DNA from: Acidaminococcus intestini DSM 21505 | GTDB taxonomy: Bacteria > Bacillota > Negativicutes > Acidaminococcales > Acidaminococcaceae | Direction: 5' to 3' | DNA: 50,582 nucleotides | Assembly: GCF_000425045.1 (NCBI RefSeq) | Contig: NZ_AULA01000015.1 | Location: 1 to 50,582 of the forward strand | Shown here: in pieces, positions 7,709 to 31,762 of the stretch | Numbering within the stretch: position 1 is the stretch's first letter | Layout of the letters: each line of letters starts with the position of its first letter | Program-made: the position numbers and the translations under genes | Notes under the pieces: generated by a model | What the model was told of the DNA's origin: nothing | The model's input: the letters and a program-made list of their open reading frames with translations, nothing else | The model's database searches: none

Positions 7709-8893
7709 ATGGATTCTCAGCAAACTTCTGTTTTTTCAAATGGACTCCTCTGGTTTGGTGCCGGTATTTCCATTGCGGAAATCCTTACAGGCATGCTCCT
7801 CTCCCCTTTGGGATGGGAAAAGGGCCTCTGGGCCATCTTCATCGGCCATATCATTGGCGGTGCCGTCATGCTCGGAGCGGGCATCATGGGAGCCCGGAGC
7901 CGGTGCAGCGCCATGGAAACGGTCAGCTTTTCCTTTGGTAAGGAAGGCGCCAGGTTCTTTGCCGGCATCAACGTCATTCAGCTCATCGGCTGGACGGCTG
8001 TCATGATTGTCAGTGCGGCAGCAGCCGCCGAAATCATTGTGCCTTTGGGAATGGCGCTCTGGGACCTCATCATTGGCGCCCTCATTGCCCTATGGATTAT
8101 CATGGGAATGACAACCCTTGGACGGGTCAACGTCCTTGTCATGACTGCCCTCTTTCTTTTGACTGCCGTCCTTTCAGGCACCATCTTTGGCGCTGACACT
8201 GCCGCGGCGCCAAGCGGCACCATCACCTTTGGAGGCGCCGTGGAACTAGCTGTCGCCATGCCGCTTTCCTGGCTCCCGGTCATTTCGGACTATACACGAG
8301 AAGCGGAAAAACCGGTGAAAGCAACCGTCGTCAGCTGCCTGACCTACTTTGCCGCCAGCTCCTGGATGTTTGTCATCGGTATGGGCGCGGCCCTTTTTAC
8401 GGGTGAAAGTGACATTGCAAAGATTATGCTCGGTGCCGGCCTTGGCGTATCGGCCATCGTCATTATCCTCTTGTCGACGGTCACGACAACCTTCCTTGAC
8501 GCTTATTCAGCGGGCGTATCCGGCCGGGCCCTGACAACATGCCTTTCGGAAAAAGGACAGGCCCTCATCGCAACGGCCCTTGGCACACTCCTTGCCATCA
8601 CCGTTGACGCCAGCCGCTTTGAAGACTTTCTCTATTTCATCGGTTCCGTCTTTGCTCCTATGACGGCCATCATGCTGGCGGATTACTTTTTTATCCATGA
8701 AAACCACCAAAAAGAACGTGTAAGCGTCCTGAAACTCCTGATTTGGGCCATCGGCTTTGGCCTTTATCGCTATCTTCTCAATGCCGATACGCCGCTCGGC
8801 GTAACCTTCCCCGTCATTGTGGCCGTCATGGTGATGGATGTGGTTGTGAGTAAAATAGTAGGTCAGTCCAAAAATCGGGCTGATTTGAAGTAG
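7709..8893 (+). CDS. cytX: CytX-type permease (NCS1 family), probably hydroxymethylpyrimidine uptake
   Basis: 394 aa with about 11-12 hydrophobic segments. The N-terminus LLWFGAGISIAEILTGMLLSPLGWEKG and the later NVIQLIGWTAVMI and PLSWLPVISDYTREA match the CytX group of nucleobase:cation symporters, usually linked to thiamine-pyrimidine salvage. No thiamine riboswitch is seen in the 75 bp upstream and no thi gene is nearby, so the substrate is uncertain (cytosine or another pyrimidine is possible). No strong ribosome-binding site precedes the ATG. The last ten or so codons lie in a 19-bp repeat shared with 30655-30673. Confidence 0.75.
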   Translation: MDSQQTSVFSNGLLWFGAGISIAEILTGMLLSPLGWEKGLWAIFIGHIIGGAVMLGAGIMGARSRCSAMETVSFSFGKEGARFFAGINVIQLIGWTAVMIVSAAAAAEIIVPLGMALWDLIIGALIALWIIMGMTTLGRVNVLVMTALFLLTAVLSGTIFGADTAAAPSGTITFGGAVELAVAMPLSWLPVISDYTREAEKPVKATVVSCLTYFAASSWMFVIGMGAALFTGESDIAKIMLGAGLGVSAIVIILLSTVTTTFLDAYSAGVSGRALTTCLSEKGQALIATALGTLLAITVDASRFEDFLYFIGSVFAPMTAIMLADYFFIHENHQKERVSVLKLLIWAIGFGLYRYLLNADTPLGVTFPVIVAVMVMDVVVSKIVGQSKNRADLK

Positions 8894-8906
8894 AACGTGA
8901 GACCCT
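8863..8906 (+). repeat. Dispersed repeat copy A, covering the 3' end of cytX
   Basis: TCAGTCCAAAAATCGGGCT at 8863-8881 is identical to 30655-30673. Both continue into ATTTGA and then a looser match (AGTA, ACGYGAG, CC). Copy A supplies the last codons and the stop of cytX. Confidence 0.7.
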
Positions 8907-9047
8907 AACTTTAGAATAGATGAAAGGGAAACGGCGCGGCTTCTCATCCACCACCAATAAGGCATGCTTGCCTCATTTTATATGGCAACATGCAGCCTTC
9001 GCTTCCCGCCTTGGCAAAGGCAGATCGATGCTGCGCACCGAGTAACT

Positions 9048-9101
9048 AAGGCAGAACACGAAGGCGTGTCGTTCCGGAAGGTATCGCTATCTTTCTGCCT
9101 T
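9048..9101 (+). other. Nested stem-loop, candidate structured RNA or terminator
   Basis: AAGGCAGAA (9048-9056) pairs with TTCTGCCTT (9093-9101). Inside lies ACACG-AAGG-CGTGT. The right arm is followed by TTCTGCC without a clear T-run. Confidence 0.4.
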
Positions 9102-9142
9102 TTCTGCCATCAACCACTTGCAAAAAATAGGTAAAATATAAG

Positions 9143-9182
9143 AGCCCTACCCCGAATCTGCGCTGATGTTCGGGGTAGGGCT
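9143..9182. terminator. Perfect 14-bp stem-loop without a T-tract
   Basis: AGCCCTACCCCGAA/TTCGGGGTAGGGCT with a 12-nt loop. The flank TACTTG is not U-rich, so a classical terminator is doubtful. It may be a transcription boundary or the end of a repeat element. Confidence 0.5.
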
Positions 9183-9476
9183 TACTTGTAGGCTTATGTT
9201 TTTGGGTCTTTTGCCTTACGAGCAGGAGCAAGGCACATTCTTCGATGGTTCAAAGCCGTGAATCGCAAGACACCGCGAAGCGATTTGGCAGTAGGACCGT
9301 GTGACCAAAAAATCAATTCGGTGCCCTCCCTGAGGGCGGTTTGGTGCCGCATGTTTGGTTCTTTTTTCCTTAGCGGGGTTACTTTTACAACACAACACTG
9401 CCCTCCAGCGGCACGATGCTTGCTCTGACTCAAAATCAAAGCTTGACAGCAGCGCAGCCATGGCTGCTGCCAACAC

Positions 9477-9513
9477 AAAAAAACTCCCCTTCCCGCAGGA
9501 AGAGGAGTTTTTT
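9477..9513 (-). terminator. Terminator of the citrate transporter gene
   Basis: A stem with one mismatch (CTCC-CTTCC / GGAAG-GGAG) and CGCA loop, flanked by A- and T-runs, 10 bp beyond the transporter stop codon. Confidence 0.85.
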
Positions 9514-9522
9514 ACTGTTAGG

Positions 9523-10854
9523 TTAGATGTGGAACAGGCCGAGAAGGGCACCGCAAAGAAGGGAAATCCAGGACAGGACCCACAGTCTCGGAGCACAGAA
9601 CTTCAGGAGTTCCTTGATTTCGATCCCAGCAAGACCGCAGGCGAGGAAGGTCGTTGCAGCATGCGGGGTAACGAGAACGCCGTAGTTCTTACCAATGAGC
9701 ATGGCCATAGCCATATCATGGGGATCAACACCGAACTGCTGACCAACGCCGATAGCCAGCGGCAGCAGACCAAAGAAGTAGGAGTCCGTACCGAGCATCA
9801 TGCCGATAGGCACAGCAAAGATACCGAAGATATCCTGCAGGTGACCGCCCAGTGCCGTCGGAACGAGAACGATGAGCATTTTGGCCATTTCCTTCATCAT
9901 ACCGGTCTTGGACAGAACGCCCAGGAAGACACCGGAAGCAAGAAGGATCATCGGCATGGTCAGTGCCGTGGCAGCGTGCATTTTAATGGCACGAGCCTGA
10001 TCGGCTGCAGAATGGAAGTTGGCGATCAGCGCAATGGCAAGGCCAAACATGAAGGCGGCATACATCGGAATCTTAGTGAAGCAGAGCAGGCCGATAACAA
10101 AGAGGGTCAACAGTCCGTTGAACCAAATCATCTTTGGACGAGCCATGAATTCCTTATCCGCATCACTCAAAGAGTCATCGCTGCTGTTGGAGTTTTCTTC
10201 AGAAAGTTCAGCGGCTTTGCCCGTCGGAACAAGGCCAGCACCGCGGCGTTTTTCCATGACGCCCATGTAGGCGGCAAAGGCAACGAGGATAACAAGGCCT
10301 ACGCCCTGAAGAGGAATGAGTTCCTGCCACAGAACGTTGACGTCAGCATTGAGGACAACGCCCGTACGAGCGACAGGACCGCCCCAAGGAAGCAGGTTCA
10401 TGATAGACATGGCAGCACCGATAATGCAGACGAGCACAACGGGGCGCATGTGAAGTTTCTTGTAGATCGGCAGCATAGCCGGGATGGTGATGAGCAGCGT
10501 GGAAGCAAGGGCGCCGTCAAGGTGGGAGATAACAGCGATGAGGCTCGTTGCAACCGTAACCATGACGATGTTGGAGCCCGCTTTCTTGACGAGCCAGTTA
10601 ACCATCGGATCGAAAAGACCCATATCCCCCATCATGGAGAAGTAAACGATGGAGAAAATGAACAGAACTGCCGTGGACCAGGTCTTACCAACACCAGCCT
10701 TGACGAATTCAAAGATCTGTGCCGGCGTGAACCCGCAGATCAATGCGGCAATGACCGGTACAATAACAAACAGAGGCACAGGGTTCGATTTGGAACGAAT
10801 CAGTGCCGCGACGATGATGACAATCATCGCAAAGCCAACAACACCCAAAAACAT
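9523..10854 (-). CDS. CitMHS-family citrate (metal-citrate:H+) transporter
   Basis: 443 aa, almost entirely hydrophobic with about 11-12 spans and a hydrophilic loop near residues 225-250. SHLDGALASTLLITIPAMLP and NLLPWGGPVARTG match the CitMHS family, which takes up citrate complexed with divalent metal. AAGGAGGT lies 8 nt before the ATG. It is adjacent to the citrate lyase module but separated from citXG by about 540 bp and a terminator, so it is its own unit. Citrate as substrate is inferred from family and context; related tricarboxylates are possible. Confidence 0.85.
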   Translation of the reverse strand: MFLGVVGFAMIVIIVAALIRSKSNPVPLFVIVPVIAALICGFTPAQIFEFVKAGVGKTWSTAVLFIFSIVYFSMMGDMGLFDPMVNWLVKKAGSNIVMVTVATSLIAVISHLDGALASTLLITIPAMLPIYKKLHMRPVVLVCIIGAAMSIMNLLPWGGPVARTGVVLNADVNVLWQELIPLQGVGLVILVAFAAYMGVMEKRRGAGLVPTGKAAELSEENSNSSDDSLSDADKEFMARPKMIWFNGLLTLFVIGLLCFTKIPMYAAFMFGLAIALIANFHSAADQARAIKMHAATALTMPMILLASGVFLGVLSKTGMMKEMAKMLIVLVPTALGGHLQDIFGIFAVPIGMMLGTDSYFFGLLPLAIGVGQQFGVDPHDMAMAMLIGKNYGVLVTPHAATTFLACGLAGIEIKELLKFCAPRLWVLSWISLLCGALLGLFHI

Positions 10855-19648: not shown

Positions 19649-22306
19649 TTACTGGAGTTTTTGAAGTTCCTTCAGTTGGTCTTCAAGGGCGGTAAGACGC
19701 GCCTTGACGTCTTCTTTCTTCGCTTTTTCCTTTTCCACGACCGCTTCCGGAGCTTTGGCGAGAAACCCTTCATTGGAAAGCTTGCCCTCAATGCGGGACA
19801 GTTCCTTTTTGGCCCCGTCAAGTTCCTTCGTCAGCCGCTTCATTTCCTTTTCCACGTCAATGAGACCCTTAAGGGGCAGATAGACCTTGGCGCCTGTCAC
19901 AACGGCTGTCATGGCGTTTTCCGGCGCTTCGTCATTGATATCGCCCAATGTCAGCGTGTCCACCGTGCCCAAGCGTTCGACGTATTCCGGATGGCCTTCA
20001 AAGACGCTGCGGAAAGCAGGTTCCACCAAGATCGTGGCCGGCGCTTTCTTCCCAGGGGCAGCGTTTACTTCGGCCCGCATGTTGCGGATGGCTTTGATGG
20101 CATCCATCATGACCGTCATTCCGCTTTCCACGCTTTCATCCATGAGGGATTCATCCGCCACAGGCCACGGCGCAATCATGATGCTCTCCCCTTCATGGGG
20201 CAGATGCTGCCAGATTTCTTCCGTAATGAACGGCATATAAGGATGCAGCAGCTTCATGGCATCGCCCAGGACGCGGCAGAGGACGAATTGAGCCGTTGAC
20301 CGTTCTTCCGGATGCTCCTTATCATAAAGGCGGGGTTTGATAAGTTCGATGTACCAGTCACAGACTTCACCCCAAATGAAATCGTAGATGAGGCGGCCGG
20401 CTTCTCCGAGTTCAAATTTTTCGAGGAAGCTTGAAACGTCCTTGATGGTGTGCTGCAGGCGGGACAGGATCCAGCGGTCAGCAAGGGTCAGAGGCGCCCG
20501 TTTAGCCGAAGCATCATACCCATCGAGGTTCATGAGGGCAAAGCGCGACGCGTTCCAGATCTTATTGGCAAAGTTTCGCGTTGCTTCGATGCGGTTCCAA
20601 TAAAAACGCATATCGTTGCCCGGCGTATTGCCTGTAATGAGCATGAAGCGCAGCGTATCGGCTCCATATTTGTCAACAACTTCCAAGGGGTCAATGCCGT
20701 TACCCAGGGATTTACTCATCTTCCGGCCCTGTTCATCGCGGACAAGACCATGGATGAAGACATGCTTAAAGGGAATTTCCTTCATAAATTCCATGCCCAT
20801 GGTGATCATGCGGGCAACCCAGAAGAAAATGATGTCATAGCCCGTCACCAGGACGCTCGTCGGATAAAACTGCTGCAGTTCGTCCGTCTTGTCCGGCCAG
20901 CCAAAGGTGGAAAAAGGCCATAGACCGGAACTGAACCAGGTATCAAGGGCATCTTCATCCTGATGGATGTTGTGGCTGTGGCAGTGCGGGCATTCCGTCA
21001 AATCCGTCCGGGACGCCATCTGCTTTCCGCAGTCGTCACAGTACCACACAGGGATACGGTGACCCCACCAGATCTGGCGGGAAATGCACCAGTCATGGAT
21101 GTTGTCCATCCAGTTCGTATAGGTCTTCGTGAAACGGTTCGGCACAAACTGGATGCGCCCGTCTTCAACGCATTCCACGGCGGCCTTCACGAGGGGTTTC
21201 ATTTTGACAAACCACTGCGTGGAAATAAGGGGTTCCACGACGTGGTGGCAGCGCTGGCAGTGACCGACAGCATGGGGCGCGTCTTCGATCTTGACGAGAA
21301 GACCCAAGTCCTTCAGGTCCTGGACGATATGCTTGCGGCATTCGTAACGGTCTTCCCCTTCGTATTTGCCGGCGTCCGCCGTCATCTTGCCGTCAAGACC
21401 GATGACCGTCAGACTGGGCAGCTTCTGGCGCTGCCCCACTTCATAGTCGTTGGGATCATGGGCCGGCGTAATCTTTACGGCGCCCGTACCAAATTCAAGG
21501 TCAACGTATTCGTCGGCCACAATGGGGATAAGGCGGTCCATGATGGGAAGGCGAACCTGTTTTCCCACAAGGTCCTTATAGCGTTCATCCTTGGGGTTTA
21601 CGGCAACGGCCGTATCGCCGGGAATGGTTTCCGGACGGCTCGTGGCAATTTGGAGATAGCGCCCGGCTTCCCCTTCGATGGGATAATTCACATACCACAG
21701 ATGGCCCTCGTCATCCTGGTGTTCCACTTCAACGTCAGACAGGGCCGTACGGCAGTTGACGCACCAATTGATGATGCGCGTTCCCTTATAGATGAGGCCT
21801 TTTTCATAGAGGCTGACAAAGGCCTCACGGACAGCACGGGAAAGTCCTTCATCCATGGTAAAGCGCTGACGGTCCCAGTCGCAGGAAATGCCCAGGCTCT
21901 TGAGCTGAGTCACGATGCGGTCGCCATATTCTTCCTTCCACTGCCAGACCCGTTCCAGGAATTTTTCACGGCCCAGGTCATAGCGAGTGAGGTTTTCCTT
22001 CTTTTTCAGTTCCTCTTCCACTTTGATCTGCGTGGCAAGTCCCGCGTGGTCATACCCGGGAAGCCAGCAGGTATTGTCCCCCATCATACGATGCCAGCGC
22101 ACGAGGATGTCCTGCAGGGTATTATCAAGGGCATGACCCATGTGGAGCTTACCGGTGATGTTGGGCGGCGGAATGACCACACTGAAGGGTTTCCGGCTCT
22201 TATCGACGGGTTGATGGAAAAAGCCATGTTCCACCCAATATGCATACCATTTCTTTTCCACTGCCGCCGGGTCATAGACCTTGGGGATGTTGTTTTCTTC
22301 TGCCAT
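19649..22306 (-). CDS. valS: Valyl-tRNA synthetase
   Basis: 885 aa, full-length class I enzyme. PPPNITGKLHMGHALD carries the HIGH-type box (55-58); GRKMSKSLGN carries KMSKS (529-533); the editing domain lies around 200-360; the C-terminal coiled-coil arm (about 815-885) ends LTALEDQLKELQKLQ. It charges tRNA-Val. The mRNA leader has a T-box with a valine specifier. Confidence 0.97.
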   Translation of the reverse strand: MAEENNIPKVYDPAAVEKKWYAYWVEHGFFHQPVDKSRKPFSVVIPPPNITGKLHMGHALDNTLQDILVRWHRMMGDNTCWLPGYDHAGLATQIKVEEELKKKENLTRYDLGREKFLERVWQWKEEYGDRIVTQLKSLGISCDWDRQRFTMDEGLSRAVREAFVSLYEKGLIYKGTRIINWCVNCRTALSDVEVEHQDDEGHLWYVNYPIEGEAGRYLQIATSRPETIPGDTAVAVNPKDERYKDLVGKQVRLPIMDRLIPIVADEYVDLEFGTGAVKITPAHDPNDYEVGQRQKLPSLTVIGLDGKMTADAGKYEGEDRYECRKHIVQDLKDLGLLVKIEDAPHAVGHCQRCHHVVEPLISTQWFVKMKPLVKAAVECVEDGRIQFVPNRFTKTYTNWMDNIHDWCISRQIWWGHRIPVWYCDDCGKQMASRTDLTECPHCHSHNIHQDEDALDTWFSSGLWPFSTFGWPDKTDELQQFYPTSVLVTGYDIIFFWVARMITMGMEFMKEIPFKHVFIHGLVRDEQGRKMSKSLGNGIDPLEVVDKYGADTLRFMLITGNTPGNDMRFYWNRIEATRNFANKIWNASRFALMNLDGYDASAKRAPLTLADRWILSRLQHTIKDVSSFLEKFELGEAGRLIYDFIWGEVCDWYIELIKPRLYDKEHPEERSTAQFVLCRVLGDAMKLLHPYMPFITEEIWQHLPHEGESIMIAPWPVADESLMDESVESGMTVMMDAIKAIRNMRAEVNAAPGKKAPATILVEPAFRSVFEGHPEYVERLGTVDTLTLGDINDEAPENAMTAVVTGAKVYLPLKGLIDVEKEMKRLTKELDGAKKELSRIEGKLSNEGFLAKAPEAVVEKEKAKKEDVKARLTALEDQLKELQKLQ

Positions 22307-22331: not shown

Positions 22332-22369
22332 AAAAAAAATAAACCCGTCCCATCAGATAGGACGAGTTC
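22332..22369 (-). terminator. T-box-controlled terminator before valS
   Basis: AACTCGTCC/GGGACGGGTT stem with G-T pairs and an 8-nt loop, then TATTTTTTTT on minus. It is mutually exclusive with the antiterminator formed by the GGTGGTACCGCG core. Confidence 0.85.
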
Positions 22370-22560
22370 GGTCGCGGTACCACCTATTTTCCCAATTGCT
22401 TGGGCAACTTGAGGACGTAACGAGCCAAACGGGCGGGCTTACTTTGGTTCAGCACGCCAGCTCCCGGGCGACTTCAAGGGATTTTCCTAGATGCTTGCAC
22501 CGGCCGCATCTTCTCTTAAAAGGAAAGGGCCCCCTACTCCTCCCGTTCAACGCTTTTTAC
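22332..22560 (-). promoter_or_regulatory. T-box leader of valS with GUC (Val) specifier
   Basis: On minus the leader has a stem I start with GGAGGAGTAGG, a specifier region ending TTGAA-GUC-GCC, the T-box core GGTGGTACCGCG (22373-22384), and a terminator (22332-22369). The specifier GUC is at 22470-22472. Uncharged tRNA-Val would pair with GUC and with the antiterminator bulge and allow read-through into valS. Confidence 0.9.
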
Positions 22561-29783: not shown

Positions 29784-30647
29784 ATGATTTCCATCCTGCC
29801 CCAAGGTTTCAATGATTTCCATTGCAAGGCTGGTGCCTGCCGCCATACATGCTGCCAAAAATGGGAAATCGATATTGATGACGATACAGCAGACTACTAC
29901 CGCGGCCTTAAGACGCCCCTGGGCAAAAAAATCCAAGACCATATGGAAAAAGGTCCTGACGGCTGGCATTTCAAATTAACCGATAAGGGCTTCTGCGCCC
30001 TTCTGCGGACGGACGGACTTTGTGAAGTAATTACAGCGCTGGGGGAAGATAAGCTCTGTGACATCTGCACAGTCCATCCCCGCTTTTTCACCTATGTCGA
30101 TGAATTTATTCTCTGCGGCACGGGCCTTTGCTGCGAAGCCTCATGCGAGCTTCTTTTGGCCCCTCACGAACCGCTTACCTTTACGGAAGAAGACACAGCT
30201 TTTATCTATACCTTCAAGGAACTTTTGGACTTCATGGGCTTTTCCCTGCCGGAAAGCCTGACCCACTATGCCCCGCTTTTCAGCAGCAAATCCTGTCAAA
30301 GCATCTTGGCTGACCTCATGATTACCGAACCCATTGATGAAGCATGGACGGAAGAGATCCGCAGCCTGCAGGGCATGATCCCCGCCTTACTGGAAAAAGT
30401 GGCTTCCTATGAAAAGACCTATGACCCCATTTCCTTTGACCGGATCTATCAATTTATTTTTTACCGTCAGCTTGATAAAGTCGAAGCCTACGGCCTTGAT
30501 GCGGTCCGCGCCTATGCCCGGCGCAGCACGGACTTCATCTTCATGGAAACAGCCCTTCACGGCAACCTTGAAGAAGCCCTGCGCCGCTGGTCCGAACAGA
30601 TTGAATATGATACAGATAATGTGGATTGGCTATTGGAACGGCTTTAA
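29784..30647 (+). CDS. FliB-like (flagellin lysine N-methylase family) cysteine-cluster protein
   Basis: 287 aa from the ATG at 29784 with GAGGTGA upstream; a longer frame from 29652 lacks family character. The N-terminus QGFNDFHCKAGACRHTCCQ, then GFCALL, KLCDICTVHPRF and CGTGLCC give about a dozen cysteines, as in FliB and YkgJ-type iron-sulfur proteins. FliB methylates flagellin lysines, but no flagellar genes are in the window, so the target is unknown. A TATAAT (29747-29752) lies upstream without a good -35. Repeat copy B begins 8 bp after the stop. Confidence 0.8.
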   Translation: MISILPQGFNDFHCKAGACRHTCCQKWEIDIDDDTADYYRGLKTPLGKKIQDHMEKGPDGWHFKLTDKGFCALLRTDGLCEVITALGEDKLCDICTVHPRFFTYVDEFILCGTGLCCEASCELLLAPHEPLTFTEEDTAFIYTFKELLDFMGFSLPESLTHYAPLFSSKSCQSILADLMITEPIDEAWTEEIRSLQGMIPALLEKVASYEKTYDPISFDRIYQFIFYRQLDKVEAYGLDAVRAYARRSTDFIFMETALHGNLEEALRRWSEQIEYDTDNVDWLLERL

Positions 30648-31264
30648 TTTTTACTCAGTCCAAAAATCGGGCTCATTTGATGAAGTACGCGAGTCCATTG
30701 CTTAAAAAAGATTTTATGGAAACAATGGCCTCCTCATAGCCTATTGTACGATGAACCTTCCCACGTTTGGGGATAGCATACGCCTGGGCGCTTCCTTTCC
30801 CAACCTTGTGTCATCCCCTCCAGCGCCCAGCTTATCAAAGCGGAAGCTTTTTGCGATCTTCATTCCATAGGGCCCATCTACTTTGTCTCCCACGGGCCTC
30901 AATCTCCTCAACGTACCGGCCTCTGGCCGTAAGGAAACTCACGCGTCGCTCATTTACTTTTGGGAGCGCCGCTTCAAAGAACCTTCGCGCATCAACTCCC
31001 ACGGCGCTATACCAGTGGGATTGCTGCCGTCGTTGGAAGCGGGGTTCCTCACAAAAGGAGCCATCTGACCCGAATTGATAAAAGGCAAATGGAAGAAAGA
31101 ACGGAAGGCAAAAGATGATAAACTAACCCCTAAACCGAACGTAAGCGCTGGTTCAGGTTAGGGTTCTTAGGGATTAGTTGGATCTAGTGAGCCTCTGCTC
31201 TTTTTGAAATCAGGATCAATGAGACAGCCCTTGGGAGGAAATTTTTTGATGCCCTCTGACAAAG
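30648..31264. other. Gene-free region rich in dyads
   Basis: About 620 bp with no supported gene. Short frames in several phases lack ribosome-binding sites. Dyads: CTGGGCGCT (30784-30792) with AGCGCCCAG (30822-30830); AGCGCCG (30965-30971) with CGGCGCT near 31002-31008; TCCCAC (30997-31002) with GTGGGA (31015-31020), competing with it; and AACTAACCCCTAA with TTAGGGATTAGTT (about 31120-31180, one mismatch). It may be a structured RNA, an element remnant or a decayed gene. Confidence 0.5.
30655..30698 (+). repeat. Dispersed repeat copy B, just after the FliB-like gene
   Basis: Same 19-bp core as 8863-8881 (30655-30673) with weaker similarity to about 30698. It begins 8 bp after the stop codon. 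Confidence 0.7.
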
Positions 31265-31296
31265 AAAAAGCCTCCACCTTTTGGTGGAGGCTTTTT
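31265..31296 (-). terminator. Terminator of the rpiB-upp-comEB unit
   Basis: Perfect AAAAAGCCTCCACC/GGTGGAGGCTTTTT stem with a TTTT loop, directly after the comEB stop. Active in both directions. Confidence 0.9.
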
Positions 31297-31300
31297 GCTT

Positions 31301-31762
31301 TTACTCGTCTTTTTTCGGTTTGAATTCTTCCAAGGTCAGTTGCTTATCGCTTGCCAGCATCTCCTGTGCCAACCGGTCAGGATACGGATGGGCATAGACG
31401 ATGCGCTCAATCCCGGCATTGATGAGGATCTTGGAGCAGACAACACAGGGCTGATGCGTGCAGTACAGCGTCGCGCCTTTGGTGGACACGCCGTTTACAG
31501 CCGCCTGGATGACGGCATTTTGTTCGGCGTGGATACCGCGGCAAAGTTCGTGGTTCTGACCGCTGGGGACATGGAGCTGCTCCCGAAGGCATCCCACTTC
31601 CTCACAATGGGCGATGCCCTTTGGCGTTCCATTGTAGCCCGTGGCAAGGATCTGCCGGTCCTTGACCAAAACGGCACCTACTTGTCGGCGCAGACAGGTG
31701 GAGCGCTTGGCAACCACCTCAGCGATTTCCATAAAATAACTGTCCCAGTCCGGTCTTTTCAT
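31301..31762 (-). CDS. comEB: Deoxycytidylate deaminase family (ComEB-like)
   Basis: 153 aa zinc deaminase. HAEQNAV gives the His ligand and catalytic Glu; HQPCVVCSK gives the two Cys ligands. Likely converts dCMP to dUMP for thymidylate synthesis. It follows upp by 3 bp. Confidence 0.85.

What the first reader, a model, noticed from the sequence alone, without database searches (positions are those of the whole stretch)
8863..8906. 19-bp identical repeat at the 3' ends of two unrelated genes 22 kb apart
TCAGTCCAAAAATCGGGCT occurs at 8863-8881, inside the last codons of cytX, and at 30655-30673, 8 bp after the FliB-like gene, with weaker similarity for about 25 bp more. Both copies are followed by about 600 bp without genes but rich in dyads. 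This suggests a dispersed element that targets or marks gene ends, and in cytX it supplies the stop codon.
Basis: seen in the sequence. Interest (0 to 1): 0.55.

Follow-up and report, generated by a model that had tools for sequence, protein, structure and literature searches.

The report
Folded repeats just behind stop codons

Summary
The 19-mer is most of a hairpin (hp1: 7-bp stem, loop usually AAAAATC) that opens a two-hairpin head of about 100 nt. A covariance model of the head has 84 matches (78 distinct places) in this 2.28-Mb genome, 16 and 3 in two species of the same genus (inferred: Acidaminococcus), and none in 52 genomes outside the genus. Both stems covary. The copy behind the FliB-like gene belongs to an element of about 527 bp; the cytX copy is a weaker head followed by other repeats. 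Placement is not random: hp1 starts 0-15 nt after the stop codon of a same-strand gene in 21 of 68 heads (1.4 expected), and in 9 of 16 heads read in the two other species, behind different genes. Eight of eight congeners hold the FliB-like gene without a head behind it. In cytX the element supplies the last codons and the stop. No Rfam family covers it, no plasmid, phage or viral match and no intact matching transposase was found. Best reading: a lineage-specific, non-autonomous repeat working like REP or BOX elements, which becomes the 3' UTR of its host gene. Its function and its mover are unproven.

The parts
7709..8893 (+). cytX-like permease gene; last nine codons and stop TAG read from the repeat head
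   Evidence: Pfam Transp_cyt_pur; C-terminus against homologues
8856..8946 (+). head of the cytX copy (model R1, 42.4 bits); hp2 poorly kept
8863..8883 (+). hp1 of the cytX copy, TCAGTCC-AAAAATC-GGGCTGA
8927..9066 (.). other dispersed repeat behind the cytX head (about 19 places in the genome)
   Evidence: query 78-217
9134..9191 (-). palindrome hp3, scores better on the minus strand
9205..9369 (.). third dispersed repeat (about 16 places in the genome)
   Evidence: query 356-520
9472..9519 (.). terminator-like dyad before the convergent gene that ends at 9523
29784..30647 (+). FliB-like host gene with native C-terminus; stop 30645-30647
30648..30746 (+). head of the FliB copy: TTTTTAC linker, hp1, hp2 (model R1, 77.8 bits)
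30655..30675 (+). hp1 of the FliB copy
30747..31028 (+). body shared with five other copies; not coding
31029..31121 (+). conserved 3' module
31120..31174 (+). palindrome hp3 at the end of this copy
31265..31296 (.). terminator-like dyad between the element and the convergent deaminase gene
31301..31762 (-). convergent deaminase gene, kept next to the FliB-like gene in 6 of 8 congeners

Best explanation
A lineage-specific family of non-coding, non-autonomous interspersed elements. Each starts with a two-hairpin head (hp1: 7-bp stem, loop mostly ANAAATC; hp2: a longer stem); complete copies go on through a variable body to a conserved 3' module, some then to a palindrome hp3. Shown here: dispersal, covarying stems, tandem and mosaic copies, no sign of coding, and hp1 placed just behind stop codons on the gene's own strand in three species. 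Shown for two host genes (FliB-like, M48 peptidase): the protein end is native or nearly so and the congeners read have no head there. Inferred: the element arrives as a mobile insertion between stop codon and terminator and becomes the 3' UTR; hp1 next to the terminating ribosome then acts as REPs do in E. coli, tuning translation or mRNA decay. Copies that land a few codons upstream replace the last residues and the stop.
For: 19 copies against 0 reversed; 48 against 1 for the loosened pattern; 84 model matches, 17 of them used to build the model. 94.0% of cells paired against 77.7% shuffled, 11 of 22 pairs changed on both sides, covariation 0.467 against 0.046-0.159 when slid. Stop-codon peak: 21 of 68 at 0-15 nt, null 2.1%; strict null 21 of 61 against 1.36, opposite strand 0 of 61 against 1.2. 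Same in 9 of 16 heads read in G002 and G005, behind proteins not similar to those here. No head behind the FliB-like gene in 8 of 8 congeners nor behind the M48 gene in 7 of 7 read. Body not coding.
Against: No transposase or other mover identified; the right edge and any target duplication are undefined. 38 of 68 heads are not within -31 to +25 nt of a same-strand stop. Same-strand placement as a whole is not in excess (43 of 61, 38.1 expected). Heads in arrays do not show the peak (0 of 10). The whole FliB element folds little better than shuffles (z -1.14), unlike the cytX stretch (z -3.89). No expression data; the gene caller and null are my own and use only stretches fetched around copies.
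Confidence: 0.55

Rival explanations
1. Purely parasitic repeats without a role. They insert widely, and the gap between stop codon and terminator is one of few places that tolerate them, so the peak is a scar of purifying selection.
For: Copies in other spacers and in arrays; BOX, RUP and SPRITE show a like preference for regions behind genes, read as tolerance (PMC3049150, passages).
Against: Does not by itself explain one orientation at 0-15 nt (21 same, 0 opposite) or the like spacing with different linkers in G005.
Confidence: 0.3
2. Left-overs of an IS200/IS605-type element (palindrome-associated elements): hairpins at the ends are cut as single strands by a Y1 transposase now lost or supplied elsewhere.
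For: End hairpin without inverted repeats; conserved TTTTAC in front of hp1 (T, T, A, C in 56, 48, 51 and 38 of 71 at -4 to -1); Y1 domains occur in 7 of 9 genomes of the genus.
Against: The only Y1 place here is partial with a stop inside and has no head beside it; the TTTTAC is missing in many copies.
Confidence: 0.12
3. Inherited regulatory 3'-UTR structures or terminators of these genes, not insertions.
For: Covariation and fixed place behind stop codons.
Against: Orthologous genes in congeners lack them; host genes are unrelated and none is shared between species.
Confidence: 0.02
4. Chance identity of two 19-mers.
For: None beyond there being only two exact copies in the window.
Against: 0.03 expected; 19 against 0 and 48 against 1 in the genome.
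Confidence: 0.01

Closest known systems
REP / BIME repeats (GTAG- and CGTC-tagged families)
   Same: Hairpin repeats with covarying stems, outside genes; in E. coli a part lies within 15 nt of stop codons, where REPs are reported to lower translation (PMC12306157, passages). Stem and loop sizes fall in the range given for GTAG families (PMC3733652, passages).
   Different: No GTAG or CGTC tag beside hp1; a long second hairpin and a body of hundreds of bp; head-to-tail arrays, which PMC3733652 calls absent or rare for REPs; no RAYT gene found.
Pneumococcal BOX, RUP and SPRITE repeats
   Same: Lineage-bound, modular, folded repeats of variable length; SPRITE is enriched close to 3' ends of genes (PMC3049150, passages).
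   Different: BOX and RUP have terminal inverted repeats and target duplications; none was found here (one copy). Lengths, sequences and the two-hairpin head differ; sequence not compared directly.
Palindrome-associated elements of IS200/IS605
   Same: Hairpin at an end, no inverted repeats (recalled; PMC7290912 seen in a listing only).
   Different: No intact parent with matching hairpins found in this genome.

Membership tests
REP (GTAG/CGTC superfamilies) | GTAG or CGTC tag at one end of the hairpin, unpaired | tested here: not met
   Consensus before hp1 is TTAC over 71 heads; TTTG or TTCG behind it
REP (GTAG/CGTC superfamilies) | Short palindrome, stem 5-13 bp, loop 2-20, many copies | tested here: met
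   hp1 stem 7, loop 7, 78 distinct places
REP (GTAG/CGTC superfamilies) | RAYT transposase flanked by inverted copies (GTAG type) | tested here: not met
   One partial Y1_Tnp place, no head beside it
REP (GTAG/CGTC superfamilies) | Pairs in opposite orientation | tested here: not met
   Arrays found are head-to-tail, 149-163 bp apart (coordinates)
MITE | Terminal inverted repeats | tested here: not met
   First against last 120 nt of window 30648-31174, no match; one copy only
MITE | Target site duplication | tested here: inconclusive
   Right edge not defined; no close empty site, congeners too diverged
IS200/IS605-derived element | Y1 transposase acting on the same end hairpins | tested here: not met
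Any Rfam family | Match at the gathering score over the element | tested here: not met
   Window: only a T-box elsewhere. Ten loci: two tRNAs above threshold, six others below it
Group II intron derivative | Reverse transcriptase or intron core | not tested
   No reverse-transcriptase search was made

The most novel reading that the evidence does not exclude
A mobile element whose insertion is steered by gene ends: it measures from the stop codon on the coding strand, perhaps by acting on the mRNA or on DNA opened behind the last ribosome or polymerase, so that each insertion spares the protein and gives the gene a new folded 3' UTR. Like spacing with different linkers, in three species behind different genes, does not exclude this.
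Probability: 0.1. Interest if true: 0.85.

Novelty: new variant of a known kind. Interest (0 to 1): 0.47.

Why it matters
If the placement holds, an unrelated repeat family in another lineage fills the niche that REPs hold in E. coli, right behind stop codons. That makes it testable whether such hairpins are put there by targeting, by tolerance or by use. It also matters for annotation: the element rewrites protein ends (cytX and at least one more), holds spurious open frames, and lies at several contig ends of the draft assembly.

Tried and rejected
Coding body: an open frame runs through several full copies, but substitutions show no third-position excess over all pairs, gaps break the frame, and the window's 103-aa frame has no Pfam family. 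Known RNA: no Rfam family over the element. Carriage on other replicons: no match for the 527-bp element in the plasmid and phage collections, none for one exact pattern in viral contigs. Named genomes: one exact pattern found nothing in genome contigs, the model nothing in 11 named genomes. hp3 as a fixed 3' end: rejected, because of 39 hp3 places 22 have no head upstream (three further weak places were not entered). Read from literature: searches listed no paper on such repeats in Acidaminococcus, which does not prove absence; passages of the A. fermentans genome paper mention CRISPR repeats only. Also consulted by passages: PMC8040213, PMC2267715, not used.

Failed or faulty steps: a term the tool does not accept; an accession recalled from memory, not held; one of 19 copies located wrongly, redone; locus L247 read on the wrong strand; it equals L196, which was read rightly; M48 part read wrong frames, redone.

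Full report
Check. In the own genome (G000, 2,282,467 bases in 55 contigs; the window is contig 14) it has 19 places at up to 3 mismatches and none for the reversed pattern.

What the motif is. With the next two bases it is a hairpin, TCAGYCC-AAAAATC-GGRCTGA. A pattern that allows other stems has 48 places at up to 2 mismatches against 1 for the control, with stems such as TCGGAGC/GCTCCGA, TCGGCGC/GCGCCGA, TCAGTCC/GGACTGA and TCAGAGC/GCTCTGA: the stem varies in matched pairs while the loop stays near ANAAATC. Behind it come TTYGATG and a second, longer hairpin, hp2. On 17 heads (16 distinct) 94.0% of cells pair against 77.7% in shuffles, 11 of 22 pairs show changes on both sides, and the covariation score is 0.467 against 0.046-0.159 when the partners are slid. 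Two measures exceed shuffles less clearly (46 and 53 of 500 shuffles reach them).

How many. Model R1 of the head has 84 matches at E up to 0.01 in the own genome, the 17 it was built from among them. Six lie antisense over another head, which leaves 78 distinct places. I examined 71 for context; the 12 weakest rows and one antisense row (C28:21872) were left out before counting. Some contigs begin or end inside copies (C31:4-98, C51:3413-3469, and C2, whose last element reaches the contig end), so the number is probably a lower bound. Within the genus G005 has 16 matches, G002 3, G003 one weak, and five genomes none. Of 61 genomes searched with stricter filters only G000, G002 and G005 matched, so 0 of 52 outside the genus. 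In 11 named genomes there was none. The genus is inferred as Acidaminococcus, because the cytX loci of G008 and G001 are identical to loci titled A. provencensis and uncultured Acidaminococcus sp..

The full element. Six copies, the FliB one among them, align over roughly 470 bp from TTTTTAC on. A 3' module of about 95 nt occurs at 32 places in the stretches held; at 26 of them its end lies 289-546 bp behind a head start. Some copies go on to a palindrome, hp3, which also covaries (9 of 16 pairs with changes on both sides, 88.8% of cells paired against 79.5%), but hp3 is an independent repeat too: of 39 places entered, 13 have a head upstream on the same strand, 4 one on the other strand, 22 none. 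Head-to-tail arrays occur with heads 149-163 bp apart (coordinates). The cytX copy shares only the head, with hp2 poorly kept, and is followed by two other repeats with about 19 and 16 places in the genome and by an hp3 in the other direction.

Where they sit. With genes called by a codon score of my own, 68 of 71 heads have an upstream gene. In 30 of 68 hp1 starts -31 to +25 nt from the stop of a same-strand gene (null 8.1%, p 1.7e-15) and in 21 of 68 at 0-15 nt (null 2.1%, p 5e-19). With strictly non-coding positions as null the numbers are 21 of 61 against 1.36 expected, and for opposite-strand genes 0 of 61 against 1.2. Same-strand genes as a whole are not in excess (43 of 61, 38.1 expected), so the bias lies in the short distance. 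First units carry it (30 of 58), trailing units of arrays do not (0 of 10). Of the heads of G002 and G005 with loci at hand (3 of 3 and 13 of 16), 9 of 16 lie 1-15 nt behind a same-strand stop, with other linkers and other stems. Among 48 upstream frames compared, only three pairs are similar, each within one genome.

Insertion. The FliB-like gene is present in 8 of 8 congeners and its C-terminal region aligns, so its stop is native or nearly so; here TAA is followed at once by TTTTTAC and hp1, while in 6 of 8 congeners I see, by eye, a hairpin with a run of T in the next 160 nt, and in none a head. The convergent deaminase gene is kept in 6 of 8; 62-352 bases lie between the match ends there, 659 here. 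The M48 peptidase gene shows the same: 7 of 8 congeners were read, none with a head; here the linker begins 3 nt after TAA. In cytX the element overlaps the coding end. Ten distinct homologues have 385-388 aa (eight), 392 and 396 aa and none of this tail; here the protein has 394 aa and its last nine codons and stop lie in the element. A second protein ends in SKNRSDLM and a third in SVQKSD, also read from heads.

What moves it. Unknown. The only Y1_Tnp place of this genome is partial, with a stop inside, and has no head beside it. One copy tested has no terminal inverted repeats. The whole FliB element folds little better than shuffles (z -1.14), the cytX stretch does (z -3.89).

Comparison. 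REPs of E. [quoted passage not shown] REP families carry a GTAG or CGTC tag, and the GTAG kind goes with RAYT genes (PMC3733652, PMC2817692, passages); neither feature is met here. Pneumococcal SPRITE repeats lie close to 3' ends of genes (PMC3049150, passages). My view is that this family works like REPs but is not a member by their defining features.

Verdict. Mobility is likely, action as a 3' UTR plausible, targeting of stop codons open.

Noticed in passing
window 22355-22559 (-): T-box leader (Rfam RF00230, 124.7 bits) in front of a long minus-strand frame at 19649-22306.
   Followed up: no
window 8927-9066 and 9205-9369: Two further dispersed repeats in the cytX spacer, with about 19 and 16 places in the genome.
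   Followed up: partly
window 9134-9191 and 31120-31174; 39 places in G000: Palindromic repeat hp3 that covaries and often occurs without a head.
   Followed up: partly
C31:4-98, C51:3413-3469, end of C2 in G000: Contigs begin or end inside copies, so the repeats probably break the draft assembly.
   Followed up: no
L254 (G000 contig 6, 46046-46315): Partial Y1_Tnp frame with an in-frame TAG, not beside a head.
   Followed up: partly
C37:569-666 in G000: A 511-aa frame ends in SKNRSDLM read from a head, the same frame of the element as the cytX tail SKNRADLK.
   Followed up: partly
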